Source: Trichobilharzia regenti
Taxonomy: Eukaryota > Platyhelminthes > Trematoda > Strigeidida > Schistosomatidae
Reading direction: 5' to 3'
NCBI GenBank assembly: GCA_944472135.2
Contig: OX235266.1
Location: forward strand, 13,433,925-13,497,924
DNA length: 64,000 nucleotides
Shown here: positions 19,669 to 59,950 of the stretch, piece after piece
Numbering within the stretch: the first letter of the stretch is position 1
How the letters are laid out: each line of letters opens with the position of its first letter
Translations under genes and position numbers: made by a program
The notes under the pieces: generated by a model
The model's input: only the letters and a program-made list of their open reading frames with translations
Database searches by the model: none
Told to the model about the DNA's origin: nothing

Positions 19669-19675
19669 ATTAATT

Positions 19676-34440: not shown

Positions 34441-34471
34441 TCAATTCTCTCTCATCCCCAAATAACCACCA
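34441..34471 (-). CDS. MEG unit 1 terminal coding exon
   Basis: Acceptor CATTTTCCACAG with a good pyrimidine tract. Phase 2 in; GGYLGMREN then TGA, at the same aligned position as the unit 2 stop. Confidence 0.6.
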
Positions 34472-37400
34472 CTGTGGAAAATGAAAATTTGAGAAATATT
34501 GGTTAGAAGTGAAAGTGTTCGGCAATACAGCATTTGTAACAGAGTCATATATATATATATATGTTGCATCATAATCACAATTCACATGTATGCGAATAAA
34601 ATGAACTTCTTGTGATGATCACAGACCTGCAAAACTTCCAGGATGTAATTCCAGAAGGAAGTGAATATGTTCAGGCGTAAGGCTGCTATTTAATTCAATT
34701 TAAGATTTTCCTGTCGACTGATTGAACCGAAGTGCTCGGCCTAAGGTTGACATATCAGCTTCCTGTGCAGGTGCTACGACAACTTCTGGCCCAAGTGCTC
34801 TAGTAGATGAAGCTTTGGCGTTTGGAATTATGGGCACTGGTTTTGAGCCTCTGTGGAAACATCATCCTTCATTGCGGGATAAAGGTGCATAAGAACGAAA
34901 TGCACTTCACGGAATCCACTGCTTGTCACCAATTCCCCAAGTAAGACTACTAGATAATAGGTAGTTTATATTAGCTAACAAGTGAATTCATGTCATGTGC
35001 TTCGCCTAACTTGGGACTGGTCAGTTGAATACCTGTTCTATTCTATATTTTTAGGTCTCAGTGTAAAATGAAATACGTTTTGGTATAAATATATACTACT
35101 AATTAATTTTGAGTAGTTAAAATATAATGACATAAATAAGTAGTGTTTGCTCGACAGACTAAAGTTTTCTAAACCTTGGATAGCTATTTTGGTACCTACC
35201 AGAGGGGTGCCCGGTTTAATTTAAATAACTCAGAGAAAATCGTTTCACAGCAATGGAATTATGACTAGTAATTCAGGTTGGTTGATTCGAGATCAGGAGT
35301 CTTACATTTCTGTATAAAGGAAAGATCAAACCTAGTTTGATTATTGGATAACTATTATGTAAGGAATCTAACGGGTCCCATTTCCCCCCGGGGGATATTT
35401 ACTGGTTGAGGAAAGATTAGTTGGACAGTAGTCGAGATCGAGTAATAACAGGTTTCGTGTATGATCTTTCCATACGGTAACCAAAATGAAGCACGAATTG
35501 AACCACTGATGATGGCCAATAAACTGATACTTTCGCGATGCTTATTGTTATGTTTATGCACTACTCAGTTAGAGCAAAATTGTCTAAAAAAGAAGCATTT
35601 CTTTCATCACTTTACGGGCTAATAATAACACCCGATTGCTCACAATGTGGTCACTGCAGTGTGATTAGAACCTAAAACTCTAAAGCAGTTATTTTAGTCT
35701 ACGTTTGCATGCGAAACAATCACAAAGCCCACGTTTCTTTCGTCTCTGCAAGCTAAGAAAGTAACCAATGAATTTCAGAGTATACATAAATGGGTATAAT
35801 ATGTTTGTAACAACATAACTCAAATGTTTTTGTTAATTTGACTTACAACAACTCATTTAAAGTGCTGTAAATTGAAACATTGAACAGGTGATAAGGCATG
35901 TTATAAAGTCATATATGTAAGTATAGAAAACCGAAATGTCGCAGTCATATAATACTAGAAATGCTATTAATGTTTCATTCTGGTCTTCCGCTTTGAATAA
36001 ACTATATTCAAGAAGAGAGATTGATTATTGAATCCTGTCTGGTCCATTGACTCTACACCCAACACATGCAATAGAAATGATTCAATGCTAATACCAGAGA
36101 TACGGAAGATATTATCACCAGCAGTCAGTTAAATCAGAGGAGGATAATAAATAATCTTAAAATTCTATCTCAATTCAAGTACAACATAATATTCTAAGAA
36201 GTTACTTATTCATTTTACTATAAAACTCTCGTCCTATTTCCCATCTGATTGTATTTGATGGATAACACTCATGTTATTTTATTATTTCGGAATGTACTTT
36301 TTCTTATATTGATTTTTATTCAAATATGTCTAATCATCAATTTCACTCATGTTAATAAATGAAGCAAGAAAGTTGTGTTAGTGACTTGATATGATTATGG
36401 GTGGCAATAGTTTGTGCTCGAAACGTCATCAGTTAATATTACCGTATAACACTCCACTGTGTGATTAATCAAAATAAAATCTTATCCCTAATGAAGTTAT
36501 ACTCTACCACAGTGCCCAAGTTAAATACTTCTATTAATAAAACGTAGTTTTGTATTGTTAAACATCTTCATAATAAAACTATCACATTTATTTTTCAGAA
36601 GGACGATGAACGCACTTCAGTTAACTGTCAACAGACTTTGGTGTAGAAAGGAGCGAAATGATGTAGGTCAACATCAAACACTAAGGATTATCAGTGGGCC
36701 TGGCTCAAACAACGTGTTTACAACTACACGCCGTATGGGCGAGGATTTCACAGCCAGTCAAGATCAGTAAAGTAAAACAATTTATCCTTCCCTTGAAATC
36801 TCAGTGTGGAATCATAGTGCTTGTAATAAGGAAACAGATTTGACTTTTTTAACATGTAACAGGTGAATAAAGTGTATTTCGAACAGACTATTATGGAATT
36901 TCATAGGTATTAACGCTATTCACATCATGGTGAAGACCGTATGACCGTTCAGAATGGATAAACAACACAAGGAGCTTTGACAACGCAGAGGGAAATTCAG
37001 GTGGATAAGACACTCGCTTGGAAGAAATCCAAGATCTTGGGTGGACCTCGAATGGGTACCGAAGAGTTGTAGCATGAAAGAAGTCATTTGAAATGAAAAA
37101 ATGAGAGTTTGCGGCTTGCTGTTGACCGTGGGTAGAAGTTAAGATAGACAATGAACTGGAACTGTATAGCATCTCAGTGGCACACTCATAGCTCAAGGGT
37201 TAAAAAGTGGCATTTTCATTAACTTACCACAATGTCTTCATTATTCCTCTTTTTTATGTAATAAACATTTGTAAGCTGAATAAATTGCGGATTCATTGAA
37301 ACAATTGTGATAAGAAATATCGTTGGATAAAAGCATGGATATATCATATGAGCATCTCAAACAAACTTCAGACCTTCATTAACAGTTGTCTTTGCTCAAT

Positions 37401-40400
37401 ACTCAAGATCAAATGGCAAGAAAAGATCAGCCAAAAGGATCTCTGGCAATGTGCGAACCAACCAGAAACCGATTGTGAAACAAGCCATCGCTCGAGTGGA
37501 ACCCGAAAGGGAAGCGGTGAGTTGGTCGTCAGTGCAAGAGTGACTTGAAGGAGGTGACGTGAAGAGGAGATGAAAGCATATGGGGAGACGTGGAGCGCGG
37601 TGAAAAAGTTGGCAGAAAACAGAAGGCAATGGAGATGTGCAGCTGAAGCCCTATGTTCCTCTAGGAACTAAAGGATATAATAATATCATATGAGCGACTT
37701 ATATTCGGTATTGTGTTCATTACTCAATGTCAATGCATAATATTTCAGGAAAAAGCGTACGAAGGTGGTATCCAACCACACTAGAATGTATAACCTACAT
37801 ATAATGCAGTTATTCAAATAAAACGAACTTAAAAGGCAAAGGTAGGAAAGAAGCTGCCATTCGCAGGCTTCAGACCAACACCATGATAAATTAAACTGAG
37901 AAGAAACGAACACCGTGGAGCATATGTTCGACCAACCACCAAGAAATCCAGTTAGTAAACTAGAAAAGCTTGAAATATCATCAGCCAGAGTGTTGGTGTA
38001 CACGCTGTAGAATCATGTCACAAAACTGCTTTTGAGAAAATTGAAATCATCATCCAGAAATATTTCAGCAGTCACAAAGAATGTCTAATATCATCAGAAA
38101 CACTTCATTTCACCAAATGGAACCCGAATTGTCTGAATAGGAATGATGGACTAAAAGAGAATTTGACCTGGTTACAACGCCCTCACCCTCTCCCATGAAA
38201 TGACAGAATCAATGCGAATGTGAAAAGTAATTTCATTATTTAAGCATCCTCTGCTTTTATAATTTTATACACCTATGAAATTCAACAATCTACACCTGGT
38301 TTTGTTATCTTTACCATTTGGCCAACTTGACAACACCATAAAATTGACCCCATGTTGAGGAATGATTATTAAGTTGTTATATATATATTCTGAGATTTTG
38401 CAAATTCTGGTTTATTGATACTACTTTGATAAAGCTATTAGCAGCAGAATTAAATAGAGACACGTCATTAAAAAAACAACAATATCGTTTTGTTTTTCAT
38501 TCATTCGAAAATACGAAAACCTTTATTACTGACTTCTGGATGGAATCTCTGAGTGGATACTAATTCTTTCAATTTGCCATTATGCCTTACTGAGGCGTGC
38601 TTAGTGGCTTGAAACCTAGATCTAGGGTATCGAGCCAGTTCTATATGACAGTCATAATCCCTTTTCCGGTTAATATACAATAAATACTTTTTTAGTTTGT
38701 TAAAACAGGGTCACCATTAAATCAAAACAAGGCTTGGTAATACTTTTGTCGGAGACTTACCCGAGCCATTCCCAGAGAGACCTTAAATCATGAAAGGTTT
38801 TCAATGAAACAAAAAAGTAACGAATACTTTCATTCTTAACTTAGCATAGAAATCCTAGGATCAGGAAATACCTAATTCAGGGACTGATCACTTCATAGCG
38901 TTTGCCGAAACTGTTATGTACTCGTCGCTAAATTGTTATGGACTGGTCGAGAATTTAATAGTCCTGACGCAAGAAGGCGGAAATCAGAAGACCACCAGGT
39001 TTGCGATGATACTTCTATTGTCCAAACACAAGGAGAAGCATTAAGTGGTATCACACCAAAGTGGTAAGTAAGTAAAGTAGTTCACACAAATTGTGTATGC
39101 GAAATATATATGAATGTTCAGACAAGGGTGTGAACAAATCAATAGACAGTCTTAACATGAATGGCGAATTATAACGAAGTATCGATCCATATATACATAG
39201 CGAAATATAGCAGACATGTCAACAACCAAACATATAATATGGATATATGTCACCAAGCAACGGACTGTCAACAAACACTCATATTATATATAATATAAGG
39301 GGAATATACATTGTTAAAGGAGACAGGTTCACACAAATGAAATGGTCACAGACTAAGCGAGTAAACAGAAAGAGAGACCAACATACACACACACACACAT
39401 AAATATATATATGTGGATACATATCAGAAGCATATATTCCAAAGCTCAATTGTATACAGTATCGATGGCCAAAATAATTCACTGGTTCCCCAGACTGCAT
39501 AATAGTTGAAGAAAACATACCAAACATGGTAATTCCGGTTATTCGAAAAAAAAATTTACCCAAAATCCAGTCTTCATAAACTGAAATGGGTGTTTAAAAA
39601 TTAACTGAAAAGTCTGATAACTATTCATTCTATAAATCTTTCTGTCATCTCGCATTGCTAATCCACCAATAAACTACGTCTGAGGGCATGTAAGGAGATG
39701 TAGTAAGCTTCTATTGTTTCGCAAAAGCTTCTGTAAGTGTTTATCATATTCTTCATACATTTATTCCCCTTGGTGAACTTGAATATAACAGGAGGAACAG
39801 TGGGGTTTGTGTAGAATAATATGTAACCATCATTGTTTATTTCGTTGCCTTCTCACCGGCTTATCAGCTGCTTACAGCCTAAATAAATTATGGCGTGTCT
39901 GTACAGAAAAGTTTTAACACACTTGCAAATTTTTCATGATGTAATTTGACAGAAGGTTCTGTAATTAGTGAACAGTGATCAAAAAATTATGCTTATACAG
40001 TTTTTACCCAGGCAGTTCAAGTTTAAACAACAACAAAAAATTATGCATAGAATGGTAAAGGAATTACGTCATAAAGATAAGCGAGGCGTAAGATACTGAG
40101 TGGCTAATATATTAGGTAACAATGAACTGAGTTTAACTCAAATCGCAGAAACAAGCGACCAGCAAAATTAAACTCTGTCAAGGGGTTGAGGTTAAAGCCA
40201 AAGATTACGTTGTCAAATGAAAGGAAGAATACAGACATCCAACTACCAAGATGGGCAAGGAAAGACTAAATTACTGCCCCTTTTTCTAAACGCATAAATC
40301 TGGTTCTAAGTATCTGATACAAATTATTTCGGCACACTTGGAGAGAATCGAGCTCCTTTGTCTTTTGATAATTTTTAGGGGTTTTCACGATTTCCATCTT

Positions 40401-43400
40401 ATGACTCTTATCTAGGTGAGGTCTAGTAATAGCGTTGTTATAAGAGTTTGTTCCCTTGAAACATGAGATTTTCGACACTGTTATGTACTAGTTTTCCCCG
40501 TCGCCAAATTGTTATGTACTCGTCGCTAAGTTATTGTTATGGACTGGTCGAGAAACTAATAGTCCTGACGCGAGAAGGCGGAAATCAGAAGACCACTAGG
40601 TTTGCGATGATACTTCTATTGTCCAAACACAAGGAGACGAAAATAAATGGTCTCACACCAAAGTGGTAAGTAAGTAAAGTAGTTCACACAGAATGTGTGA
40701 ACGAAATATATATATATAATAAAATATATATAGCAGACATGTCAAACAACCATATATGGATATATGTCACTAAGCAACGGACTGTCAACAAACACTCATA
40801 TTATATATAATATAAATGGAATATACATTGTTAAAGCAGACAGGTTCATACAAGTGAAATGGTCACAGACTAAGCGAGCAAACAGAAAGAGAGACCAACA
40901 TACACACACACACATAAATATATATATGTGGATACATATCAGACACATTCTCAGGAAATCAGAGTTGTGCAGTTTTTTCTGTTGTCCTAATGTAAGTGTT
41001 CCCGCAGACACATATAAATTTTGTAAACACAGTTGGAGTTGTAATGGGAAGAGTATCTGTTTAGGTTTGATTACACAGAACAGCATACTGCTCCCTGGAA
41101 GGGAACCAACTTAGCTGCAAGATAGACTATGACTAGTGTCGTACTCAGCCTTCTGTTGACCACTACTACTTCTTTGCCATAGTATGCAAACATTTATTTT
41201 GTTTGAACTTGAGCTGCCTGTGTAAAAATCTATATAAGCACAATTTTCTGAGTACTGTTCATTAAGTATAGAGCCTCGTGTAAACTGAAATCATGAAAAA
41301 ATTGCAAGTGTGTTAAAACTTTTCTGTACATAAACCCACCTCATCATTTATTTAGGCTGTAAGCAGCTGATGAGCTGATGAGAAGGCAACGAAATAAACA
41401 ATAGTGGTACCATATTATTCTGCATAGACCTCCGCTTTTGTTCTGTCTCTATTCAGTTTAATATATTCAAATCCTGACTTCAATAATAGTACCCTCAGTC
41501 ACATTCACTGATAAACTTGAATAACTGAAGGTAACTGCAAATGGCAGGCGTCTGAACTACAATAGCTTCAATCGCCCGCCTAAGCTACTGTATGTGTCCT
41601 TTAAGAGGCCATACTAGAGAGCAGAAAAGCTTACTTTAAAAAACACAACAGAAAATCCACGTAATCATGTTACGGAATAAACACATTGAATCATAGGAAT
41701 TATTAAAAAGACAGTTGCATGTTATTTTTAAGTTTTTCTTAATCCCTCCTATTTACACTACCATATTTTCATATCCAAACTGGCTGTTATTTCTACATAT
41801 TCAATCCCTGACTGCATAAACAATCATTCGTCACATTAATTATGATCCCACTAGACTTTTTATCCAAACATCCTGTCTATTTTTGTTATTTCTACATCTC
41901 TAACCCTGAAGCGTCGGTGGTATAGCGATTAGGACACTCGCCGACCATGCATATGGTCCGGGGCTCGGTCCCCGGCCGGCGCACTCCTTTACCTCACTGA
42001 CCCAGAAATAATGCTGGTAAAGAGGAACGGTTGGGCATGAAATTAGCAACCCCATCCTGTAAAAATTAAACACTGCTACAGAAACTTCAAGCCATTAGCT
42101 TGGAGCCCTATGTTCCATTGGGAACGTGAAGGAAAAGTTATTATTATTATTAACCCCGAATTGCATAGTATGTCAACCTTCTCAGTAATTATGATGCTAC
42201 TTTGTTTGAGTTTTATCCATTCCCCTCATTTTTATTATGGCATGTTAATTCCTAATTGTAATTTTTTTAATTTGACCCTTAACCGTAAAATTATTCTGAA
42301 ACTTTCCTACCCATTTATTTTAAATACATGAATGTACAGCCTACTTGATGACTTCGTCGAAAAGAAACTATTTTTCGCTTCAACCGCATTTTTAGTAGTC
42401 AAATTAAACAATAAACATGCGAAAAGATTATTAGAGGACCACTTTCAGCATAGCAGAGGAAAGAGAGAGTAAATTTCCCGTTGAGAAGTAACACAGGTGT
42501 TCAGTAAGTTAAGAATTACAAGCAAGAAGCTTAGAGAAATCAGTGTCACACTGATGAAAAGGAGCCTTCAGTTTGATAAATTCTTTAATAACCAACTAGT
42601 TCGATTGCTTGGTTGAACCTGAAAGAAAGTACAACTCCACCAGCGTCCATGAAGTTACTTGTAGTTCGTCTTATTAGTCAGTAAATTAATTATTTCTTAA
42701 TAAAGTGTACCATGATTTTAAAATCAATCTGCGTACTTACTTGCTAGTTCGTGGTGAATTCTCAACTGGACAGTTTAATAGAAAATCAAATTGCATTAGA
42801 AGTTCAAAATGCAACATGGAACAAGATGAAGCATTGAGCACATCATTATACCATTCAAAGGTTGATACCAAGATGTAACTTACTGATCAACGACACTGAG
42901 TCAGCCTGGCATTCCATATTTCCATAAGATGAGGTCACATCCCACTGAATTTACCAATTTTTGAATGTACATGTGATCAAATATACACACGGGGGCATAT
43001 CGACCTCTGCAAGTAAAGTCTGGCTTCAGATCATATTCCTAAATGGCTTAAGAAGCAAACAAAATCCCAAGAACTCAATAATGGTGAGAACAGTATATCT
43101 AGCTCCTCTATTGCGAAATATATTATACAGATGGGACATGAAATTCATGTTTTCGCACGCTTTTTAAACCTATCTTAAGAAGGTGTTTGGGTGAGGGCGT
43201 GTCCTAAAGTTTGTGGAGGCCCCAGCTACCGATTAGGAAGTTCATATCATCTGTATGATTTCACAAACCTTGCTTGATAAAATTTATTTTGATACCAACC
43301 AGGTTGGATGTACTATTACCTCCCTTCTTTGGTTTAGTGATATTCATTGTTATTTTCACCTTTAATATGTCCTTTTTACTTGACCTAGGTCTATTTCCTA

Positions 43401-45634
43401 GCCTCTTAACTCTTTAATAATTTCTAATGTGTATTCCTATGACACGCCCGTGAAGTGTGATCAGATTGTTTGAAACGTGTTGCGCAAATACATTACACAC
43501 ACACGTGATTCAGACAAATTACGTCTGCTTATTGCTTTGTCTAAATTCATAAAGGTAACTAACTGTTTCCGTGTTGTGTAGCGGAAATCACATTTGATAA
43601 GGTTTAACAAAAATTGGAGTCGAACTTGTCGTTTTCAGTTTGTACAGTCTGAGGTGAAAATCCTGATTAAAATGGAAGTTTTTAATCATGAGCTGACATC
43701 AGTTAGAGAACCACTGGAAAACCTGAGAGTACTGGACAGCTGTTTCGTCCTAGTTCGGGACTCCTCAGCAGTACGCACCCACCGGGATTCGAACCCAGGA
43801 CCTTCTGGTTACAAGGCGAGCTCATAGACCATTGAGCCACCGGGACCCGATCCAATGGTCCTTGAATTCTAACTTCTGCCAGTTCACGACATAGCGCGAC
43901 CATTAGATCGGGTCCCAGTGGCTCAATGGTCTACGAGCTCGCCTTGTAACCAGAAGGTCCTGGGTTCGAATCCCGGTGGGTGCGTACTGCTGAGGAGTCC
44001 CAAACTAGGACGAAACAGCTGTCCAGTACTCTCAGGTTTTCCAGTGGTTCTCTAACTGATGTCAGCTCATGATTAAATCCTCCATGCAATCAAACAAAAT
44101 CCCTACAACAAACCAATACTTAAAATGGAAGTGTTTGAGATCACAAAACGTGCATTAGGATATCACTAACGGCAATGAAGTAAGCAAGCATAGATTGGCG
44201 ATGTCTGTCACAACTCTCTCTGTGTGCAGTTGTGTTATGCATTAGCAAATTCATAAGCAACATTATCATAGACACTTGGTATTATTAATCAGAATCAAAG
44301 TGGCGTGTTCAGTTGGTTAAATATTTGAACCAAATGTGTGACAATATGAAAGTTATTAACAAAGAAACATAAAGATACCTGGTATGCTTAGCGTGTACTG
44401 ACTAACCTACATCTTTCTATAATTCCCCACTCTCGTTTTTTTAATGGCTCTTTATATTTCATTATTCAGAGATTGTTTTAAGCCATCCCAATCAGATAAC
44501 AGCTTATGAATACTCAGTTCTCAGAATCATACATGAAGTTTCTCCATAAAATAGGATCTATCACTGCTTTGGAATTGCATATGTCATCAAAATATACATA
44601 ATTTGGATAGAGGATTTCATCATGAGCTGACATCTGTCAGAGGACCATTGGAAAACTAGTTTGGAGAACCGGGAAGCTGTTTCGTCCGCCTAATTTGAGA
44701 CTCTTAAACACAAGGCACCCACACCGCGGAGTTCCATTCCAGGACCTTCTGGTTAAAAGGCGACCATTAAGCCACTGCGACCCAATCCAATGGCTGGCCT
44801 CCATGAATTCCTACTTCTACCAATTGATGACAAAGCGTGGTCAGTGTTTATCCACACACTACACCTGCTGCACCTTGCTGGACACGATGTCCCACCGGAA
44901 CCACAGATAACTACCTACTCGAAGGGTGTCAGTAGCTAGTGAGCCTCTCGAACTCCTCTTGGTGCGCATTAATGAAGAGTCCTAGACTGGGACGAAGCAG
45001 CTTTTAATTACTCCCAGGTTTTTTAATGGTTCTTAAAATCGATGTCAGCCCATGATGAAATCCTGTTTTCAATCAATTAAATCCCCACAAACTAATGCTT
45101 GACTGTACTCATTTTATAATTGATACAGCATATTATAATCGAGAGGCTGCTGATTTTCTCATAAATACGTTTTCTGACATGGATAGTTGAACTGCTTAGC
45201 TTTCATTACCTCTTCGGAAAGAAATTGTCCATGATAACTTCAAGATAAAATGAGCTTTCTGAATTCCGCTTCAGTTCGATAACGATCTTAAAATTCACAA
45301 CTTGACTAAAAACAAAAATGAGAAGTCAATTAACGACGTTCAAGTTCATCAGGACAGGCGGTTATTCCATTCATAGAAAAAAGGGACATGTTCACTTAAT
45401 GAAATTATTCAAAAGGATGCTACCATGTAAGACATTGAAAGCTTTATCCATAAACTAATTACCTTAGGGAACGTAACTACACTAGAAACATCAAATCATT
45501 TCTGCATAAGCTGTATAAGTATGCAAGATTATTTCAAGTGCAATATGAAACTCACCTAGTTCTTCTCCATCAATACTAAGCATTAAAATGTGTAGGACAT
45601 GTAGAACAAACGAGAGAAGAATAGCTGATCTCAT
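34441..45634 (-). CDS. micro-exon gene (MEG-like), unit 1
   Basis: Five coding exons, minus strand: 45634-45556 (79 nt), 42765-42741 (25), 37248-37228 (21), 35864-35847 (18), 34471-34441 (31, ending TGA). The join is 174 nt with no internal stop: 57 residues. The first exon encodes a signal peptide (MRSAILLSFVLHVLHIL...); the rest gives small hydrophilic blocks VENSPRTS, KGIMKTL, CTLNEL, FGGYLGMREN. Donors are GTGAGT, GTAAGT, GTAAGT and GTAAGT. It is paralogous to unit 2 (53.0-59.95 kb) along promoter, intron flanks and 3' end. A small secreted peptide with signal exon plus tiny exons is the MEG plan of schistosomes; no specific MEG number is claimed. The exon corresponding to unit 2 exon 2 has lost its donor here. 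Introns host a solo LTR, a PLE, a SINE and fold-back elements. Transcript evidence is needed for certainty about the smallest exons. Confidence 0.6.
34780..34930 (+). repeat. Smalpha-like SINE remnant with deleted hammerhead
   Basis: Promoter-like head (GCCCAAGTGCTC...GCTTTGGCGTTTGG) followed by the ribozyme's 3' half ACGAAATGCACTTCACGGAA and CCACTGCTTGTCACC. The CTGANGA core and stem II are deleted. Confidence 0.5.
35847..35864 (-). CDS. MEG unit 1 micro-exon, 18 nt
   Basis: Acceptor GTTTCAATTTACAG, donor GTAAGT. Only phase 2 is open, giving TLNEL, which matches the phase left by the 21-nt exon. Confidence 0.5.
36000..36540 (-). pseudogene. PLE terminal-repeat relic
   Basis: CTTGATATGATTATGGGTGG ... 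AATAAAATCTTATCC matches the right terminal block of the PLE at 10.56-10.68 kb. The preceding 36060-36110 resembles its internal region. No coding frame. Confidence 0.45.
36950..37195 (+). pseudogene. RTE-like coding-end relic
   Basis: Reads GKFRWIRHSLGRNP then WVDLEWVPKS, a degenerate form of the WRWIGHSLRR...W.P.G block of RTE elements. Inserted in a unit 1 intron. Confidence 0.45.
37228..37248 (-). CDS. MEG unit 1 micro-exon, 21 nt
   Basis: Donor GTAAGTT. The acceptor AG follows an A-rich rather than pyrimidine-rich tract, so the left boundary is the weakest in the model. Phase 2 in and out; reads KGIMKTL with the preceding two bases. Counterpart at 54565-54585. Confidence 0.45.
37345..37680 (+). 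pseudogene. RTE 3' end fragment
   Basis: LQTFINSCLCSILKIKWQEKI, then after an internal deletion GTGGAACCCGAAAGGGAAGC and the tail GCCCTATGTTCCTCTAGG, ending in ATAATAATA. Close to 63.72-64.0 kb, and at the tail to 14.2 kb. Confidence 0.65.
38912..39426 (+). mobile_element. solo LTR, copy 1
   Basis: TGTTATGTACTCGTCGC ... GTGGATACATATCA, 515 bp, flanked by GAAAC (38907-38911) and GAAGC (39427-39431), a 5-bp duplication with one change. Contains (CA)n and TATA-rich stretches. The internal retroelement is absent. Confidence 0.75.
39770..41460 (-). pseudogene. Penelope-like element with inverted tails, split by a solo LTR
   Basis: The minus strand carries the same nuclease/C-terminal region as the plus-strand PLE at 2.9-3.4 kb (tail 39770-40260, coding remnants 40260-40478 and 40942-41120). 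A second copy of the tail lies in plus orientation at 41130-41450, so the coding part is flanked by inverted tail repeats. Multiple stops. Confidence 0.6.
40479..40941 (+). mobile_element. solo LTR, copy 2, nested in the PLE
   Basis: 463 bp with TG...CA ends, flanked by perfect 5-bp duplications GACAC (40474-40478 and 40942-40946). Interrupts the GIY-YIG part of the surrounding PLE, so it is younger than it. Confidence 0.8.
41911..42150 (+). mobile_element. tRNA-headed SINE with RTE body and tail, copy 1
   Basis: Head 41911-41982 folds as a tRNA-like structure: GCGTCGG pairs with CCGGCGC, with an A-box-like TGGTATAGCGATTAGG and a B-box-like GGCTCGGTCCC. The body (42010-42092) aligns with the RTE 5' untranslated region at 11.07-11.15 kb, sharing GCTACAGAAACTTCAA. 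The tail GCCCTATGTTCCATTGGGAA plus (TTA)n matches the RTE 3' end. Flanking 10-bp repeats TAACCCTGAA/TAACCCCGAA differ once. Confidence 0.75.
42741..42765 (-). CDS. MEG unit 1 micro-exon, 25 nt
   Basis: Acceptor AACTGTCCAG, donor GTAAGT. Phase 1 in, phase 2 out; reads VENSPRTS. Aligned in position and length with 57276-57300. Confidence 0.55.
43729..43774 (-). ncRNA. hammerhead ribozyme, type I, minus strand
   Basis: Stem I GTACTG/CAGTAC, core CTGAGGA (CUGANGA), stem II GTCC/GGAC with loop CGAACTA, GAAA box, a minimal stem III ACAGCTGT (two pairs closed by AGCT) and cleavage site GTC. All conserved core positions match the hammerhead consensus. The two-base-pair stem III suggests activity as a dimer, as proposed for hammerheads of Penelope-like elements. 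Confidence 0.8.
43984..44029 (+). ncRNA. hammerhead ribozyme, type I, plus strand
   Basis: Same 46-nt design as the minus-strand ribozyme: stem I 43984-43989 with 44024-44029, core CTGAGGA 43990-43996, stem II 43997-44000 with 44008-44011, GAAA 44012-44015, predicted cleavage after C44023. Only the stem II loop differs (CAAACTA). Confidence 0.82.
44195..44225 (-). pseudogene. decayed micro-exon in unit 1 (equivalent of unit 2 exon 2)
   Basis: Aligned to 58403-58423 by the flanking TATGCATTAG intron sequence. An acceptor-like CACACAG is kept but the donor position reads CCAATC instead of GTAAGA, so the exon would be skipped; the frame is unaffected because neighbours are in phase 1. Confidence 0.35.
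44612..45105. repeat. fold-back element, copy 10
   Basis: Full layout with both termini (GATTTCATCATGAGCTGACA; CCATGATGAAATCCTG), decayed ribozymes in both arms (TTTCGTCCGCCTAATTTGAG at left; AGTCCTAGACTGGGACGAAG at right) and the central block. The right arm's tRNA-like unit is deleted. Confidence 0.6.
45556..45634 (-). CDS. MEG unit 1 exon 1 (signal peptide)
   Basis: ATG at 45634-45632, 26 codons plus 1 nt, donor G|GTGAGT (45555-45550). Basic start MRSA, hydrophobic core to about residue 19, then SIDGEEL. Confidence 0.7.
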
Positions 45635-46165: not shown

Positions 46166-46287
46166 TGTCACCCTACTAGTAGTATGACTGTCATCAAGCA
46201 CTTCTCGAATCTATAAACTCAGGTTGACATGTTGGCTTCTTGTACAGATGCTTCGACGATGTTTTTTTATGTGCAATGAAGTTAGTT

Positions 46288-46590: not shown

Positions 46591-46599
46591 ACTTTATTA

Positions 46600-47185: not shown

Positions 47186-47189
47186 TATT

Positions 47190-49400: not shown

Positions 49401-49504
49401 CTTAACCATCCATCTTCATTGAATTTACTTGATGATAAATGGTTTCGGGTGTCTTTTTCCATCGTTGGCTGACAAAGACTATATTTTTAAGGATATTTCT
49501 TCGG

Positions 49505-49760: not shown

Positions 49761-50310
49761 GTATGGTTTCACGTAGCATCTACAAGTAGAATCGAAGAAT
49801 CAAAATAAAGTTTTAAGTATACGTGTAAGCTGATCATTTCAAGCTGAAATCAATGGAACTTACTATTAAAGCAATCAATGCTCAAACTGTCCTTAACGGA
49901 ATTTATTAAATATCAAAGTTGTCTTTACAGTTAGAAGCAGCTTTTTATATTATCTAGGCACCAAAAGGAGAGAAACAAACAGTTTCAGATAACTTATCTC
50001 AAATAAACTCATTACTCTGTTTAGCAAAATATCTTGCTTCTCTAACGTCAATGTATGTAAAGAGTACATTATATTTTTTTATGAGTCAAAAATGTTTTTA
50101 GTTTTGATGGAGTTTTTATGTTTTAAATTTATTCGAGCAACTTATTTAGCTTGGTTTTTAAGGTAAGCTTCTTGGGGGTCTAAAACTATGTTGTCGTTCA
50201 ATCTTTGCATTCAAAATGAAGCATAGAGCCTAATTATTACATCTTTACCCCATTCAATTCTCTGCCATCAATGTCATTAACCTGTTTGACCCAGATAAGA
50301 AATTTCCAAT
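49761..50310. other. no supported gene
   Basis: AT-rich, nothing recognised. Confidence 0.35.
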
Positions 50311-50314
50311 TATT

Positions 50315-51430: not shown

Positions 51431-51937
51431 TTGAGAGTGTCATTAGTGATAATAGGCAATCTACTTAATTAGTATTATAAAATTGTATGCGATTTTTTCT
51501 GATTCCCTTCATTTTCATTTAAAGCAGTATGCGGTTACGGCATTTAAAGGAGAGTGCGGTGAAATTTTTTACAACGAGTTCTATATATTGCATGTTAATC
51601 TGCTATTACTGGTTCACTTTGATGGCTTACTAGAAATTGAATGCCTTTAACTGACCTTCGGGTTGAGTCGACCCGTCTTTCCCACTAATGAGCTTATCCC
51701 CAAAAGAGAGTGGGGTGATCGTCCGGTGTTTAGACTATTTCGATCCGGCTAGTGAGCATTCATGGTTGCTCCAAGTGGTATACAAGTACGTATCTCAAGC
51801 AGTCAGTGGAATATGATCTTATTCAATTAGGCTATACGGCTACTCACTAGCTTTCATTGTCTCCCTCCATATAATCCTTCATGTCATCAATTTAATCAAC
51901 AACAACAATAATTAATTCTGATCCATTTGAAGGTAAA
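51431..51937. other. no supported gene
   Basis: Nothing recognised. Confidence 0.35.
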
Positions 51938-51950
51938 TGGAATCATTATC

Positions 51951-52363
51951 TCAGGGTTTCGTCATGAACTGACATCGGCTAGACCAACAGTGGAAAACCT
52001 GGGAGTACTGGATATCTGTGTCGTCCTATTTCGGGGCTCTTCAGCAGTAGGAACTAACCAATGGGTAACAGCAGCTTGGGTGTTGGGACAAACACCCGTC
52101 ACTGAAGACACTTTCCAGTGGTTGATCTATTGGGACAAGTTGGAAATTATGGGATGGCCACTGGATTGGGTCTACGAGTTCGCCTTGTAACCAGGAGGAC
52201 CTGGGTTCAAACCTTGCAGTGTGGATGCGTACTAATGAAGAGTCCCGAGCTAGGCTGACAAAAAAGCTGTCCATTACTCCCAACTGGTTATACAATGATC
52301 CTCTAACTGATTCCAGTTCATAATGAAATCCTGAACCAAATCAAATCCCTACAAACCAACAAT
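51951..52363. mobile_element. fold-back element, copy 12, with target-site duplication
   Basis: Flanked by 13-bp perfect repeats TGGAATCATTATC (51938-51950, 52364-52376). The left ribozyme (minus) has CTGAAGA and good stems, but GAAA reads GACA. The right one (plus) has C3 to A and GACAAAAAA. Right terminus AAATCCCTACAAACCAACAA. Confidence 0.75.
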
Positions 52364-52376
52364 TGGAATCATTATC

Positions 52377-52860
52377 CCCACCTGGTTCGCTATACATTGA
52401 GCAAAATAAGTGTGCTAAATATAAATAAATTTCACTTGTAATACCTGAAAAGCGAGACTGTGTGACCTGAATATATTACTTACAAGTTTTGAAGAGGAAA
52501 TGTGCGAACTAGTATGCCCAGTATAGAGCACATCGAATAGTGAGAAAATGGTGACTAGTGGGGTTCACTATGACAAATGTGAACTGGATTCTGGTCAGTA
52601 TGATCAGCTGGCAATACTCTTCAGTTACAAGCCCTAGACACATATAAATCCACATGTGATTGAATTCTAACAGCAAACAGCCTATCCCTGTGACCGAGAG
52701 TTGTTGGATTCGATCACGAACTAAGTTATGTTTGTGTTCACATTTCTAAAGAGTTCAAAACCATGCGAGTGATTCTCAGCGCTTCTTTACCGACTACTTA
52801 TGGTTCGTTGAGGAATCTACAACGGAATATCTTTGACCTCAAAGTAAAATAAGAATTCCA
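52377..52860. other. no supported gene; weak SINE remnant
   Basis: About 52680-52800 has tRNA-like phrases (GTGACCGAGAGTTG, GGATTCGATCACG) but no clear fold. Confidence 0.3.
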
Positions 52861-52879
52861 TGATAAATTTATGTATTGA

Positions 52880-52885
52880 TTTATT
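52880..52885 (-). terminator. poly(A) signal of MEG unit 2
   Basis: AATAAA on the minus strand about 130 nt after the stop, within a region alignable to unit 1. Confidence 0.5.
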
Positions 52886-53016
52886 TAAAAATGACAAATA
52901 AGTGGAAACAGAACATTAATGACAGTAAAAAATATAAACTCATAAATTAGCAGTCTGTTTGTTGATTCTTCGCTAACTTGTGTGGCACTAAAAATTTCAT
53001 TTGCTTGCCATTCACA

Positions 53017-53047
53017 TCAGTGATTTGACGTCCCAAAGAAATTACCA
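53017..53047 (-). CDS. MEG unit 2 terminal coding exon
   Basis: Acceptor CATTCTTTTTTTAATAG. Phase 2 in; GNFFGTSNH then TGA. A second frame (phase 1) is open for 32 codons; the phase-2 stop is favoured because it is shared with unit 1 and fits the upstream exons. Confidence 0.58.
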
Positions 53048-56000
53048 CTATTAAAAAAAGAATGAAAATTCAAGAAATTAATAAAAGTGAATGTGAGTGG
53101 CAATACATACATATAGGGGAGTCAAATATATTGCATCACAATACAATGTCTCCAGGAGTCAGAGTTGGTGTTAGCTATCAGGTGGAACTAGGATGTGTGT
53201 TTCTTCCCATTTGGGACTCCTCAGCCAGATATTTCGTAATAAGTAATCTTAATTAATCTAAATATTTATGTTATTTGTGATAACGCACAATAACCCAAAA
53301 ACTGCATCGTGAACCTTGAGTAGGTTTTGTATATGATGTGGTTTTTGATCTTCAAGCTAAAAGTGAAAAAATCACCGATTGTCGCGTTAATGCATTACTA
53401 AACAGGAACGCATTTATCCATGAGGGAGGTGCTTTTCATGTACATAGATGTTTATACGTATTATTCCTTTATGTTCCCAGCTGAACGTAGGGCATCAAGC
53501 CAGAGCTTTGAAGTTTCGGTAGCAGTAGTGTTTTGTTTTAACGAGATGGGTTTGCTAGCCGCATACCCCAACCTCCCCTCTGTACTAATCTTATCAATGG
53601 CTCATTTAAAGGAGTGTCTTTTCGACCGGAGATCGAACTACGAACCACCTGCGTGGTTGGTCAGCATTCTACCGCTGTGTCACTGACTCATGGTTCTTTT
53701 CCTATCAATCTGAAAATAACTAAAACTAAATAGGAGCAGAGATCCTTTGCTTTATAAGCAGTAAAAACAACTAGTGAAATTCAAGAACGCAATAAATGAA
53801 GACAATCGAATTTTAATATTGAAACGCACATAAACCCATTTCACTTAAAACATAGAATTTAAAGTGCTGTACATTAAATAATTAGAAAAGGAATAATGCA
53901 TGGTATACAAATAAATAAATAAATTAGTATACATAAACACACACACATACTTCATACCGAAATTATCGCCTTCATTGTTTGGAAAGACATTGAAATCTTT
54001 TCACTTAAACTACCCTTTCAAATTAGCATATTCCAACCTAAATTGGTGTAGAAAGACACCAAGGACCGAATCACATGAAATTATTCCCCCAAGGTGATGA
54101 AGATCACTAGCACACATCATCAGTGGGCGAAATCCCTTGGATATTGTCTTTTTTCCATTACCTAGCCTAAGCAACTTCGTTACAACAACAGGCGGGGAGG
54201 TTGAAGAATTCATCAAGCCGAGCCAGTATTGTTCAATACTGTGGAATCACTGTGAGGAATTAGTGAATTTCAATTCAATGCGTATATATTATCAGGAGAC
54301 TACATCGCCAGAAAGGACAAACTATGCATCGAAAAAAAGAGAAAGGGATGAAGACGAACTGAACATAGACAAGGAAGACATTCAATTACTTGATCTTGAT
54401 ACGTAGTAGATCATGTGAAGCTGAAATCGAATCTTGTAGGTAGTCGTAGAGCCAGCTGGTAATGATTACAGAGAATAACGTTTAATAGAGTTATACTTCT
54501 GAGTCACACTCGGAAAGCGAGGAATTATTACGAATAGTGAATAATGTCATTTTCATTTACTTACCATAACATTGTAATTAGTCTACTTTTTTTGTGTAAT
54601 AAATATTAAAAAGTTGAAAGGCGATGTGTCAGCTAGTAAGCAGACATTAATTTTTACTCTGGTAGTTATGTCTACGAGTTATTCAACAAGAATTTAGTGA
54701 AAAGCATACAACCTCAATAGTCAAATATCGTAACGCTGAAGGAATTAAACCAGTCAGGTTTACAGTGTAGTCACTCAACTTGCTGATTTACTACAGTTAA
54801 GGAATAACCTACTGTCTCTGAGTTCATTGCTGGATGACTCAGCCTTGAATATTGCTTTCTTCATGTCTGCAGTGACGACACCTTTGTGATGAATGCCAAA
54901 AAGTATGAAATCAAGATCCAAGGATTCTAAATCAACTGTTACAGTCATGTATTATCGTTTCCATATAACTTATATTATTTCTATTTCACCTTCATTTTCA
55001 CAGTGAAACCCTTTGCTGTTTACCTTTAAAGAAGTCTCAAAACGTTATTCAATCCATTCTCAATCATGATACCCCTTTCTAAAACTTACGTAATCTTAGC
55101 CCAGACAGAGCTTAATTCATAAAATATTTCCAGAGAAAAATAAATCAAAGCCTTTTTAGTTTTAACAAAACACAGGTTATCATGAATGAAGATTTTCGGA
55201 AGCAGTAATCAGTGAACACAGAATAAATTTTTTATTTATTCTATTTTTGATTGCAGCTTGATTCCATACTGTATTTTTTGTACAAGTATGGAATTTTCAG
55301 TATGGATATCGATAGCCCAAATTTTGCAGCCCGACCATAGATATCAGGTGTGCGTCGGCAGGGGCTGGAACCTCGGATCATGTTCATGATCAGCGAGATT
55401 CCTAACCACTGTGCCACCAGTTATGTTATAGCGCTTATTTAATTAGTCTTAGAAGCATATTGGCTTGCTATATGGGTCGAAAATATAATGCAAAGATTCT
55501 CTGTTATAACAGAGTATTCTTTGATACAAGAGAGGCGTCTCCTAAAGTGAATTTATGTTGTTCGAAGTGAAATCTACAGAGAAAGATCGCATACAATGAC
55601 ACAGAAGTTTGAAAACAGCTGATAAATCTCATGATACAATAAATAGCATTCTGACTATACGTTGTACAACTCAATCTGTCGTATTCTAATGTTAGTTCAA
55701 CAGTATATGTTTGACTATATTTAGAGACGGTGTTAGGTCCTAATGTTTTGCAACAGCTTCAGTAAGTTCTTACATAATTTTAGCCTAAAAATCACCAGTT
55801 GTTTCCAAACCCTTATTGCGCAAATCCTTTAGCACTTTATGCATACACTTATTTTGTAAAAACTTGAAATCCGTGTGCAGAAGATATATACGTTTTTATG
55901 TGTTTAACCATAGATTGAAAGCAGCTGGACAACCATTACAAATCAGCAAGGACCGGATAGATGTTTCATATTAGTTTGGAAATCATCAGCAGTACGCACC

Positions 56001-59000
56001 CATCACTGGGGGTTCAAACTCAGGACCTCCCAATTATAAGGAAAGTTTGTGTACAATTCAGCCGTTGGGACCCGATTCAATGGCCAGGCCATGAGTTTTA
56101 ACTTCCACTAATTCATAATTTAGCGCAGCCACCAATCAGTGGTTGGCTATGAGTCGCAAAACTGGGATGGAACAGTAAACCAGTACTCTCTCTCTGGTTT
56201 TCAATGGTTCTCTAACTGATATCAATACGTGGTCATACGCGTAAAAAAAACAAATGTAATCATCACAAACCAAACCCTTGAAAAACCATATAAGTGTGAA
56301 TTTCTGAGCACTGTTCAGTTAGTCTATTCCCTCTTGTCACCTAACATCATATAGAATTTACAAGCACGTTAAACCTTTTTTGGGGCATTAACGCAATAAT
56401 TTATTCAGGCTGTAAGCATCTCATGGAGAGCCAACGAAATAAGCAATGATAGTACCATATTATTCTGCACAAAACACTGTTGTTTTTGCTTTATTCGCAT
56501 TTATAGAGAAGATTAAATGTATGAATTTTCCAATAGGCTTACAAGCTAATTAGTTAAGGGACAACAAACCTTAAAAACTACATTTCATCTTATTACTTCT
56601 TCTGATTAACTTGAATTAATGAAAGTTACTGGGAATGGCCAAAGCCTAAACTTAAATAGCTTCTCCTTTCGTTATCCAGGAGATAAGTTTCGTACGAATA
56701 CTATATTGGACAGCAGGAAAGCTCTACTCAAAGCAAACATTAGAATTACTCCTAGTATGGCACTGGCAAGAAGGAGTTAAGTGTTATCAGTGGTTAGGAC
56801 TCTCGCCGACCATGCATATGGTCCGGGGTTCGAGCCCACGCCGACGCACACCTGATATTTATGGTCGGCCTGCGAAATTTGGGCTACCGATATCGCATGC
56901 TAGAAATTCCATACTTGTACAAAAAATACAGTATGGAATCAAGCTGTAATCAAAAATAAATAAAAATAAAAATAAAATAAAAACGAGTGTTAGGCAATTC
57001 AGGACTTATGAATAATTGAATTGAGGAAATCATTGTCAGGTGTATAAAAGGAGCAATAAGAAGGACACATAAACACGCACACAACTTTAAATCTAATAGT
57101 CGCTTATTAAGCATTTTGTTCAAGTACATAAGCAAAACTAGTCCTAATTGCATTTCCAGCTGCGTTTATGAAGAGTTACGTGCAGGACAGGCTTTTCAGG
57201 AAGGGGATCTATCAGACAAATTAAAGATCAATCACTGAAATACAGCAAAGTTTTAAAATCAACCCCCGGACTTACTTGCCAGCGTTTGCTGACTCGCTAT
57301 CTGTGTAACAGAGAATCAAAATGTATTAGAGTATCACAGAAACACAAGGCTAATTGAAGTCTTGATCACATGATTATGCCCTCGAAAAATCTCAATATTT
57401 AAAGGCCAGTGTATGAATTAATTCCACGCATCAATGAATTTCACTTCTTCATACGGTATACCTGATATGTATCCACATATATATTTATGTGTGTGTGTGC
57501 ATGTTGGTCTCTCTTTCTGTTTGCTCGGTTAGTCTGTGACCACTTCACTTGTATGAACTTGTCTCCTTTAATAATGTGTATTCTCCTTATATTATATTAT
57601 ATATAATATGAGTGTTTGTTGACAGTCCGTTGCTTGGTGACATATATCCATATATGTTTGTTGGCATGCCTGCTATATTCGCTATGTATAATTGGATCGA
57701 CACTCCATTATAATTAGCCATTCATGTTAAGACTGTCTAATGACTTTTCCCACGCTTGTCTGAATTATTTATAGATATTTGCATTCACAATTTGTGTGAA
57801 CTACTTTACTTTACAACTACGTGACTTACTTACCACTTTGGTGTGAGACCATTTATTTTCGTCTCCTTGTGTTTGGACAATAGAAGTATCATCGCAAACC
57901 TAGTGGTCTTCTGATTTCCGCCTTCTCGCGTCAGGACTATTAGTTTCTCGACCAGTCCATAACAATAATTCAGCGACGAGTACATAACAATACCATCCTT
58001 CCTTAATATATGCGTTTTTGTGTTTGCGTTTGTCAGATGCCACAGTGGACAAAATTAACTATAACTTGGAATCGAATATACAGTTGGGAATTTGCATATT
58101 CTGAGTTGAAGACTGACATTCAATACGTCTGAGACTATTAGTGACAATTAAGATAACAACCGAATATTTGCGATGACCTACTAAGCATAATCTAATTGCT
58201 GTATATGCTTGATGTGCATGGCTCTGAACAAGCAAAGAGATCTTTTAGTGTTTCGATTACTTCGATTTGTCTCAAAAGCACTACCAACAGACATGAATGC
58301 TTTCCATTTACACAGATCAATTACTGATATGCATGAATCATCACAATTTATTCTAGTGAAGATCATATCTCATGCAAGTTATAAGAAGTATGTCTTTCTT
58401 ACCAAGGCGCTGAAATCGCGTCTCTGAAGAAATAACGATATGCATTAGAACACATTAGTAAATAATATTATCATGTCGACTTCATATGGCACATTTGAAA
58501 CACTGTTCTACTTGCATTTAATTGACAATTCAATACACATATGGACAATAGCGAAATCATTACCAAGAAGATATAAAGTCTTTAGAAGTGCTTAACATAT
58601 GAAATTGAAAGATGAGGATATTTACTAACTACTCCGTATCTCTCCCTCTCATTATCACTTTCTTTTCTTGAATGTAAGTATAAATGCTCTTCCATATCTC
58701 TTCAGTGTTGGGTATTTTTAACTGAACCGAATCGGATCACAACATAACAACAGTGAAGTTTCAAAACCATAGACGAGATTTCTTAATAAAATTGGAACTT
58801 TCATAGCTATGAAATGTGAATAATGTCTTCAGTAGAATACGATAACTCTTTCAAACAAAGAATTAGTAAAACTGAGGAAAAACCAGATCCTCAATGAAAA
58901 GATTTAAGGCGGAGGGTTTCAGTTTTGGACTAGTGGCTGAAAAAATATTCAGCAATGATAGCTTCAAGATAAAATGAACTTTATGAATTCGCCGTCAGTT

Positions 59001-59950
59001 TGATGACTTTCTTTTTCCTACGATAAGCTTCAATATGACGATTTGTCACCAGAAATGATTTAACTCTCCAGACATATCCGCTTTCGTTTGTAAGAATCGT
59101 TTAGATTTCCCAGTAAATCTGATCTGCGTCGATAGATTGAAGACTGCGAAGTAACCTGAGCATCAGACTTGTAGAAATTCTTAACTGTTTAGATTGTCTG
59201 ATGCATCTAAGATTTGTGCACGCTATAGATCCACGATCGCAAACAAGCCATCTTAGACACCTCCAAGGTTTCGTGCTAGTTGACACTTACAAGTTAGCAA
59301 GGCGTATCTGCCACCTTGAAGGAAATCATGTCCCTCCTAAGATCCCAACCTGCATCACCCAAAGACGTTGCCACTGAGCTATTCAGCACCTTGTCGATCG
59401 CCTACAACCATCTTATATCATCAAATCAACGTGCACCGTGAAGGTGAGCTACCCAGAATGGTGGCCACATTACAAAACTTGAACAATAGAATTCAATCTG
59501 CACCAAACAGAAGAATAGACGCATCACACTAGTGGACAAGAACAGTCACCTTTCTGAATGACAAAATATACATATTGCCAAGAGGAAAATATCACAAATT
59601 CTTGAGAATTTCAGGTTAAAGATCAGATTTTGCACAGTAAATGGAACTGCAGAAGAGACATGATGGACTGGTACTCGCAACACGCATTCAGAAATAGAAG
59701 TGCTCAAATTCCTTTTGAAGTCAATCTTTAAAGGCTGTGAAAGCCTGAATCATTGACCACCTACCTAAGAAAATTTAACTACATCAGAAACATCGAGACA
59801 TTTTTATTTTAATGGCCTTATTATAAAATAATATATACCTAAGAAGGTTACAATAATAATATCAAACTCACCTGAGCTTCCTCCTTCTGTGTGTTGTATC
59901 AAAGTGTCTAGGATAAGTAGAAGAAATGACAGAAGCGTAGCTGACCTCAT
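53017..59950 (-). CDS. micro-exon gene (MEG-like), unit 2
   Basis: Five coding exons, minus strand: 59950-59872 (79 nt), 58423-58403 (21), 57300-57276 (25), 54585-54565 (21), 53047-53017 (31, ending TGA). The join is 177 nt with no internal stop: 58 residues. The signal exon begins MRSATLLSFLLLILDTL, followed by blocks ETRFQRL, DSESANAG, NRLITML and CGNFFGTSNH. Donors: GTGAGT, GTAAGA, GTAAGT, GTAAGT. Paralogue of unit 1, about 14 kb away in the same orientation. The position matching the 18-nt exon of unit 1 has lost its donor (TTAAGT for GTAAGT). Likely product: a small secreted peptide of the schistosome micro-exon type. What it binds or does cannot be read from the sequence. Confidence 0.62.
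53458..53697 (-). mobile_element. tRNA-headed SINE with RTE body and tail, copy 2
   Basis: Read on the minus strand: a decayed tRNA-like head (GAGTCAGTGACACAGCGGTA ... GTTCGATCTCC), a body with GGAGGTTGGGG and CTACCGAAACTTCAA (RTE 5' region), and a tail GCCCTACGTTCAGCTGGGAA plus TAAAGGAATAA. It lies in the last part of MEG unit 2, in an intron. Confidence 0.6.
53849..53866 (-). pseudogene. decayed micro-exon in unit 2 (equivalent of unit 1 18-nt exon)
   Basis: GTACAG|CACTTTAAAT... is preserved from unit 1, but the donor reads TTAAGT. Skipping leaves the frame intact, since 18 nt is a multiple of three. Confidence 0.45.
54000..54460. other. unidentified segment shared with 36.6-36.8 kb
   Basis: TTGGTGTAGAAAG, CATCAGTGGGC and TTACAACAACAGGCGG...CCAG blocks align with the unit 1 intron at 36.63-36.77 kb. 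A plus-strand frame 54137-54406 is open for 89 codons with an acidic end (RERDEDELNIDKEDIQLLDL), but unit 1 does not preserve it. Confidence 0.4.
54565..54585 (-). CDS. MEG unit 2 micro-exon, 21 nt
   Basis: Donor GTAAGT. Acceptor after an A-rich tract; an AG three bases in gives an 18-nt alternative. Phase 2 in and out; reads NRLITML. Confidence 0.45.
55225..55440 (-). mobile_element. tRNA-headed SINE with CR1-type tail, copy 2
   Basis: On the minus strand: CATAACTGGTGGCACAGTGG tRNA-like head with B box region GGTTCCAGCCCC, then the CTGATATCTATGG, GATATCCATACTGAAAATTC and AAGCTGCAATC tail. Confidence 0.6.
55970..56240. repeat. fold-back element, copy 13 (decayed)
   Basis: Minus-strand tRNA-like unit (GGTTCAAACTCAGGACC read on plus), central block with TTTAGCGCAGCCACC, right-arm remnant GTCGCAAAACTGGGATGGAA and CCAGTACTC. 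Confidence 0.5.
56340..56512 (+). repeat. PLE 3' tail repeat
   Basis: AATTTACAAGCACGTTAAAC ... GGCTGTAAGCATCTCATGGA ... GTACCATATTATTCTGCAC; same tail as 3.7 and 41.4 kb. Confidence 0.6.
56785..56960 (+). mobile_element. tRNA-headed SINE with CR1-type tail, copy 3
   Basis: Head with GTTAGGACTCTCGCCGACC and B box GGGTTCGAGCCC, then GGTCGGCCTGCGAAATTTGG and tail CCATACTTGTACAAAAAATA ... AAGCTGTAATC plus A-rich end. Confidence 0.7.
57276..57300 (-). CDS. MEG unit 2 micro-exon, 25 nt
   Basis: Acceptor CTCTGTTACACAG, donor GTAAGT. Phase 1 in, 2 out; reads DSESANAG. An AG four bases inside would give a 21-nt alternative, but unit 1 supports 25. Confidence 0.55.
57463..57989 (-). mobile_element. 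solo LTR, copy 3
   Basis: 527 bp, reverse orientation to copies 1 and 2, TG...CA ends, flanked by perfect 5-bp duplications ATACC (57458-57462, 57990-57994). Inserted in the intron between MEG unit 2 exons 2 and 3. Confidence 0.8.
58403..58423 (-). CDS. MEG unit 2 micro-exon, 21 nt
   Basis: Acceptor CGTTATTTCTTCAG (strong), donor GTAAGA. Phase 1 in and out; reads ETRFQRL with the preceding G. Confidence 0.6.
59080..59540 (+). other. possible retroelement-like open segment
   Basis: One plus frame (about 59146-59352) is open for some 70 codons (LDCLMHLRFVHAIDPRSQTS...). No domain recognised; it lies inside the first intron of MEG unit 2 on the opposite strand. Confidence 0.25.
59872..59950 (-). 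CDS. MEG unit 2 exon 1 (signal peptide)
   Basis: ATG at 59950-59948, 26 codons plus 1 nt, donor G|GTGAGT (59871-59866). Hydrophobic core LLSFLLLILDTLI, then QHTEGGSS, a credible cleavage region. Confidence 0.72.

What the first reader, a model, noticed from the sequence alone, without database searches (positions are those of the whole stretch)
34441..59950. Two paralogous micro-exon genes that can be spliced in silico into secreted peptides
Two minus-strand units each have a 79-nt signal-peptide exon in phase 1, then 21/25/21-nt or 25/21/18-nt exons with GTAAGT-type donors, and a terminal exon whose TGA sits at the same aligned base. Both joins are open (58 and 57 residues). Independent phase agreement across five exons in two copies is hard to get by chance. 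MEGs are an established schistosome gene class; this particular pair may be undescribed.
Basis: partly seen in the sequence, partly recalled or inferred. Interest (0 to 1): 0.92.

Follow-up and report, generated by a model that had tools for sequence, protein, structure and literature searches.

The report
Micro-exon gene cluster, bird schistosome
Two of four neighbouring genes of a bird blood fluke lie in this stretch; each is built from a signal-peptide exon plus several exons of about 20 bases and would encode a small secreted peptide, which makes them new members of a known class of flatworm genes.

Summary
Both minus-strand units have the stated exons, phases and aligned TGA; the joins give 57 and 58 residues. 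Unit B (52.9-60 kb) reproduces all 93 residues of an uncharacterised Trichobilharzia regenti protein, A0AA85IVP7, when spliced as 79/21/25/21/21/14 nt plus a terminal exon. The four share exon lengths 79/25/21/21, their phases and eight splice dinucleotides. An 18-nt exon is present in three; its counterpart in B lacks a GT donor. C-D differences fall mainly at third codon positions of the joined frame (16 of 28, p=0.008), so that frame looks constrained. This fits micro-exon genes (MEGs), a known schistosome class. No MEG subfamily could be assigned, and no RNA was available. The most likely role, inferred only, is a secreted peptide with a helical middle that acts on host cells. New members of a known kind, not a new phenomenon.

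The parts
45556..45634 (-). Unit A exon 1: ATG, signal-peptide-like N-terminus, 79 nt, ends in phase 1, donor GTGAGT
   Evidence: aligned to B, C and D
44200..44219 (-). Unit A counterpart of B exon 21a in a gap-rich alignment: acceptor AG kept, GC instead of GT at the donor; probably not an exon
42741..42765 (-). Unit A 25-nt micro-exon, donor GTAAGT
38761..38781 (-). Unit A 21-nt micro-exon (21b), donor GTAAGT
37228..37248 (-).
35847..35864 (-). Unit A 18-nt micro-exon, donor GTAAGT
34441..34471 (-). Unit A coding part of terminal exon, TGA ends at 34441; poly(A)-signal-like ATTAAA at 34295
59872..59950 (-). Unit B exon 1: ATG, signal-peptide-like N-terminus, 79 nt, donor GTGAGT
   Evidence: identical to P0001 = A0AA85IVP7
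58403..58423 (-). Unit B 21-nt micro-exon (21a), donor GTAAGA; no 21-nt candidate with a GT(A/G)AG donor was found in intron 1 of C or D, and the A counterpart lacks GT
57276..57300 (-). Unit B 25-nt micro-exon, donor GTAAGT
55090..55110 (-). Unit B 21-nt micro-exon (21b), donor GTAAGT
54565..54585 (-).
53849..53866 (-). Unit B counterpart of the 18-nt exon of A, C and D: acceptor kept, no GT donor; probably not spliced as in A
53830..53843 (-). Unit B 14-nt exon of the deposited model, donor GTGCGT; shifts the frame of the terminal exon
52947..53047 (-). Unit B coding part of terminal exon: TGA ending at 53017 in the frame shared with A; TAA ending at 52947 in the deposited 93-aa frame; AATAAA at 52885

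Best explanation
These are two of four neighbouring micro-exon genes of Trichobilharzia regenti, made by segmental duplication. Exon 1 encodes the signal peptide. The mature part is assembled from 18-25-nt exons separated by introns of 0.5-4 kb and closed by a short coding stretch of the terminal exon, giving peptides of 62-65 residues (93 in the deposited B model). Multiples-of-three exons can be skipped without losing the frame, and exon gain or loss (21a, the 18-nt exon in B) diversifies the copies. The mature peptide has a short variable part, then a Ser-Leu/Val-Trp...Cys stretch encoded mainly by 21b and 21c that is probably helical, then a C-terminus such as Gly-Phe-Phe-Gly-Met. I infer that it is released at the host interface and acts on host cell membranes or proteins. 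Shown here: gene anatomy, duplication, conserved splice sites and phases, frame constraint in C versus D. Inferred: transcription and use of the upstream regions, secretion, and function.
For: B's splice pattern reproduces all 93 residues of A0AA85IVP7. Four copies share exons 79/25/21/21 with the same phases, and all eight shared splice dinucleotides are kept in each. The 18-nt exon keeps its GT donor in 3 of 4 copies. Conserved-frame joins are open in 4 of 4 copies: 64, 65, 62 and 62 aa. C versus D: 28 differences in 189 nt, 16 at codon position 3 (p=0.008); mature part dN 0.205, dS 0.505. The deposited B frame of the terminal exon closes after 5 codons in A, C and D, while the shared frame gives similar endings in all four. 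Micro-exon bodies differ more between A and B than their flanks: 36 of 67 identical versus 129 of 180 (p=0.0098; the flanks include splice signals), and versus 1468 of 2214 non-coding (p=0.036), in line with the high mature-region dN/dS reported for MEGs (PMC4350168, passages). Gene shape matches the published description: longer 5' exon with the signal peptide, micro-exons under 36 bp, mostly symmetrical (PMC4671649, passages).
Against: No RNA evidence was available, and the basis of the deposited model is unknown. The deposited B model ends in another frame than the one shared with A, C and D. A-B differences show no third-position excess (22/21/26). A third frame of the terminal exon is open for 24-26 codons in A, C and D (1 in B), though it shows no codon-position bias. 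None of six published MEG motifs matches the joins of A, B (two versions), C or D. Amphipathicity is uneven: permutation p 0.002 (A), 0.012 (B), 0.059 (D), 0.17 (C) for segments picked by eye, and the maximum moment over the whole mature part is not unusual in A64, B65 or B93. The helix prediction for the 93-aa protein is weak (mean pLDDT 61).
Confidence: 0.88

Rival explanations
1. B is a working gene, while A (and perhaps C and D) are decaying duplicates whose splice sites survive because too little time has passed.
For: A has no GT donor at the 21a counterpart. No homologue search returned a protein for A. A versus B shows no codon-position bias.
Against: A, C and D are open in the same frame and keep every shared splice site, although aligned non-coding DNA of A and B is only 66% identical (1468 of 2214). 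C-D divergence is third-position biased. The 18-nt exon is intact in A, C and D but not in B.
Confidence: 0.1
2. The micro-exons are chance AG/GT pairs in introns of a gene whose real exons lie elsewhere.
For: A loose scan gives chance pairs often (331 of 1000 shuffles reach 3), and the strict scan has one antisense donor as well.
Against: An independently deposited protein uses these exons of B, and two further copies found afterwards keep lengths, phases and an open frame.
Confidence: 0.02
3. The units are non-coding spliced transcripts with an incidental signal-peptide-like ORF.
For: Short exons, low conservation of micro-exon bodies between A and B, and nothing but A0AA85IVP7 in three homologue searches.
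Against: Third-position bias in C versus D across the joined exons, four of four open frames and a similar signal-peptide exon in each.
Confidence: 0.03

Closest known systems
Schistosome micro-exon genes (MEGs) in general
   Same: Signal peptide in a longer 5' exon, central micro-exons mostly multiples of three, long introns, small product, clustered duplicates, fast-changing mature part between A and B.
   Different: None of six motifs taken from PMC10526429 is present in the joins of A, B, C or D. Only 4 or 5 micro-exons per gene, fewer than the 10 to 20 short exons that paper gives.
MEG-26 family and other amphipathic-helix MEGs (MEG-9, -12, -27, -28)
   Same: Short secreted peptide with a probably helical, partly amphipathic middle; T. 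regenti is reported to have three MEG-26 family members (PMC5825161, passages).
   Different: Net charge of the stretches tested is -1 to +2, against above 3 or below -3 stated for MEG-12 and MEG-26. [quoted passage not shown] Sequences of the T. regenti MEG-26 members were not available to compare.
Trichobilharzia MEG transcripts of PMC6362228
   Same: Same genus; the paper reports 4 T. regenti and 10 T. szidati MEG transcripts, some not close to S. mansoni MEGs (passages).
   Different: Sequences are not in the passages seen, so identity with this cluster is open. They were picked by BLASTp similarity to S. mansoni MEGs, which this cluster may not show.

Membership tests
Micro-exon genes (MEGs) | Central coding part made mostly of exons under 36 bp | tested here: met
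   25, 21, 21 and 18 nt in A, C and D; 21, 25, 21, 21 and 14 nt in B
Micro-exon genes (MEGs) | Most micro-exons divisible by three | tested here: met
   3 of 4 in A, C and D; 3 of 5 in B
Micro-exon genes (MEGs) | Signal peptide mostly or wholly in the 5' exon | tested here: inconclusive
   Hydrophobic N-terminus lies in the 79-nt exon in 4 of 4 copies; no signal-peptide predictor was run
Micro-exon genes (MEGs) | Long introns, about 100 to 5000 bp | tested here: met
   504 to 3959 nt over all introns of the four models
Micro-exon genes (MEGs) | Conserved S. mansoni MEG motifs of PMC10526429 | tested here: not met
   0 of 6 motifs in A64, B65, B93, C62 and D62. I take the motifs as descriptive of S. 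mansoni proteins, not as the definition of the class
Micro-exon genes (MEGs) | Alternative splicing in transcripts | not testable with these tools
   No RNA data; on paper 8 of 16 exon subsets in A and 8 of 32 in B reach the shared TGA
MEG-26 family | Amphipathic helix with net charge above 3 or below -3 | tested here: not met
   Charges -1, +2, +1 and 0 for hand-picked stretches of A, B, C and D; Heliquest itself was not run
MEG-26 family | Sequence similarity to MEG-26 proteins | not tested
   Searches returned nothing but A0AA85IVP7, and no MEG-26 sequence was fetched

The most novel reading that the evidence does not exclude
In unit B, loss of the GT donor of the 18-nt exon was followed by use of a 14-nt exon just downstream that is not a multiple of three. 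It shifts the terminal exon into another frame and adds a new C-terminus of about 37 residues; that frame closes after 5 codons in A, C and D. Skipping the 14-nt exon gives the old ending, so one gene would switch between a short conserved peptide and a longer new one.
Probability: 0.35. Interest if true: 0.5.

Novelty: new member of a known kind. Interest (0 to 1): 0.4.

Why it matters
MEGs are hard to annotate because their exons are too short for most gene finders. This cluster gives four aligned copies in a bird schistosome in which exon gain or loss, donor loss and frame change can be read directly. It also raises the question whether a public gene model (A0AA85IVP7) shows a minor or wrong C-terminus, and it may extend the MEG repertoire of a species for which MEG-4, -8, -9 and -26 relatives are named in the passages I saw.

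Tried and rejected
Protein family search: Pfam found nothing for joins A57 and B58. Three homologue searches gave A0AA85IVP7 or nothing. The looser scan for conserved splice pairs was dropped as evidence because shuffles often match it. A fifth copy was considered: an exon-1-like 79-nt stretch at window-relative 111069-110991 has a GTGAGT donor, but the alignments of its downstream region with A-D gave only short or repeat-like matches, so it stays a lead. A third frame of the terminal exon, open for 24-26 codons in A, C and D, was considered and set aside: C-D differences show no bias in it beyond the shared stop (2/3/4 over 53 positions), while the first 25 nt favour the shared frame (5/1/1) (small numbers). 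Whole-genome counting failed: a 246-nt DNA query found only A and B and missed C and D, so it is no measure of copy number. The fold of the 93-aa protein was judged too weak to search with. DeMarco 2010 is not held.
Full report
On the minus strand, unit A has exons at 45634-45556 (79 nt), 42765-42741 (25), 38781-38761 (21) and 35864-35847 (18), and a terminal exon from 34471 with TGA ending at 34441. Unit B has 59950-59872 (79), 58423-58403 (21), 57300-57276 (25), 55110-55090 (21), and a terminal exon from 53047 with TGA ending at 53017. The joins are open, 57 and 58 residues.

Organism and prior record. A search of 5.8 billion proteins with the B join found one protein, A0AA85IVP7, 'uncharacterized protein', Trichobilharzia regenti. 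All of its 93 residues come from the window by splicing 79, 21, 25, 21, a further 21-nt exon (54585-54565), a 14-nt exon (53843-53830) and the terminal exon read to TAA at 52947. So the window is T. regenti or a very close relative, a bird schistosome (taxonomy). B is already deposited without a function. The A join found nothing at E 10 or better, and a three-row profile found only A0AA85IVP7. These searches need shared five-residue words, so distant relatives can be missed. How the deposited model was made, and whether RNA supports it, I do not know; exons of 14-25 nt are seldom predicted without transcript evidence, which is my inference.

Missed exon. The extra 21-nt exon (21c) has a counterpart in A at 37248-37228, flanked by AG and GTAAGT. 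With it A gives 64 residues and B, without the 14-nt exon, 65.

Tests between A and B. The units are collinear in 22 blocks. I aligned 12 stretches based on these blocks (one was lengthened to take in the 21a place) and 16 stretches (two neighbouring blocks merged); small blocks and, repeat-derived blocks were dropped. The splice dinucleotides of the shared exons are conserved 8 of 8; for other positions in the stretches the rate is 58 of 136 for GT and 42 of 104 for AG. Bodies of the 25-, 21b- and 21c-nt exons are identical at 36 of 67 positions; their 30-nt flanks, which include splice signals, at 129 of 180 (p=0.0098), non-coding aligned DNA at 1468 of 2214 (p=0.036). A strict scan returned three sense-strand pairs; 19 of 2000 shuffles reached three, and the antisense strand gave two pairs that share one donor. 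Its thresholds were set after the exons were known. A looser scan gave 7 sense pairs (three are the micro-exons, four end at the exon-1 donor) and 4 antisense pairs; 331 of 1000 shuffles reached 3 and 48 reached 7, so I do not count it. A-B differences in the shared exons show no codon-position bias (22/21/26).

A cluster of four. Ten flanking 10-kb stretches were taken from the same genome, in which the window is C5:13433925-13497924. They hold two more units to the right, in window-relative coordinates: C on the minus strand from 77018 to 69323 and D on the plus strand from 86950 to 96738. All four have 79/25/21/21 nt in the same phases; A, C and D also have the 18-nt exon with GTAAGT, while B has no GT there. 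A third frame is open for 24, 24 and 26 codons in A, C and D and 1 in B, without codon-position bias beyond the shared stop in C versus D (2/3/4). C and D are the closest pair. Their 28 differences over 189 coding nt fall 8/4/16 on codon positions (p=0.008); after exon 1 they fall 8/2/15 (p=0.006); mature dN 0.205 and dS 0.505 by a simple count method. I read this as evidence that the spliced frame is translated and constrained; it rests on one pair and few sites. Profiles of the exon-1 and terminal regions, built from the four copies, find these four and no others at E 10 or better in the 194 kb held. Genome-wide copy number is open: the answered DNA search with a 246-nt query found A and B only, missing C and D, and the protein search did not complete.

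How it probably works. Exon 1 gives the signal peptide (no predictor was run). The mature peptide is encoded by the micro-exons and, in the shared frame, 7 to 9 codons of the terminal exon. A helical middle with a Ser-Leu/Val-Trp start and a Cys shared by the four is predicted weakly (mean pLDDT 61 for the 93-aa protein, a helix over residues 34-76). The hydrophobic moment of the stretch beats residue shuffles in A (0.002) and B (0.012) but not clearly in D (0.059) or C (0.17), and the maximum over the whole mature part is not unusual (188, 159 and 418 of 2000 shuffles reach it for A64, B65 and B93). A paper on S. japonicum proposes that short amphipathic MEG peptides act on ingested host cell membranes (PMC5825161: abstract passage; section 18). 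I take the same as the likeliest role here, at about 0.4, with protein binding or antigenic variation as alternatives. Skipping symmetric exons keeps the frame: 8 of 16 exon subsets in A and 8 of 32 in B reach the shared TGA.

Relation to known genes. The class features of MEGs, as given in PMC4671649 (passages), PMC4350168 (passages) and PMC10526429 (first part of section 5, and section 19), are met in gene shape. None of six sequence motifs from PMC10526429 is met in the joins tested. MEG-26, the likeliest subfamily by peptide type, is not supported by charge or by exon-1 structure, and its sequences could not be compared. PMC6362228 reports four T. regenti MEG transcripts (passages) and PMC4749378 lists MEG-4 and MEG-8 hits among T. 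regenti transcripts (passages); whether this cluster is among them is open. In nine paper searches (several lists were capped at 10 or 20) I saw no title or abstract start that describes this cluster; figures and supplementary files could not be read.

Verdict. Confirmed, corrected and extended: new members of a known gene class, of moderate interest because four aligned copies show exon gain or loss and a frame change.

Noticed in passing
window-relative 111069-110991 (L006), minus strand: A further 79-nt ATG exon-like stretch encoding a signal-peptide-like sequence, ending in phase 1 before GTGAGT, right of unit D; no partner exons recognised. Possibly the first exon of another MEG.
   Followed up: partly
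14582-20158: LTR-type retroelement: 485-nt direct repeats 99.4% identical around minus-strand ORFs of 1050 and 334 aa; the larger has reverse transcriptase, RNase H and integrase domains. Looks recent.
   Followed up: no
12354-13367 and 26699-29332, plus strand: Two further reverse-transcriptase ORFs; the second also has an endonuclease-like domain, as in non-LTR elements.
   Followed up: no
43984-44029 (+) and 43729-43774 (-): Two hammerhead type I ribozymes above the Rfam cut-off, in an inverted pair of short repeats inside intron 1 of unit A, close to the 21a counterpart.
   Followed up: no
38904-40943 and 57462-57989: Two similar direct repeats about 1.1 kb apart in an intron of unit A; a related copy lies in the opposite orientation in an intron of unit B, and one in an intron of D.
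   Followed up: no
A 45289-45231 and B 59013-58955: A 59-nt stretch, 83% identical between A and B, in intron 1 away from any exon; role unknown.
   Followed up: no
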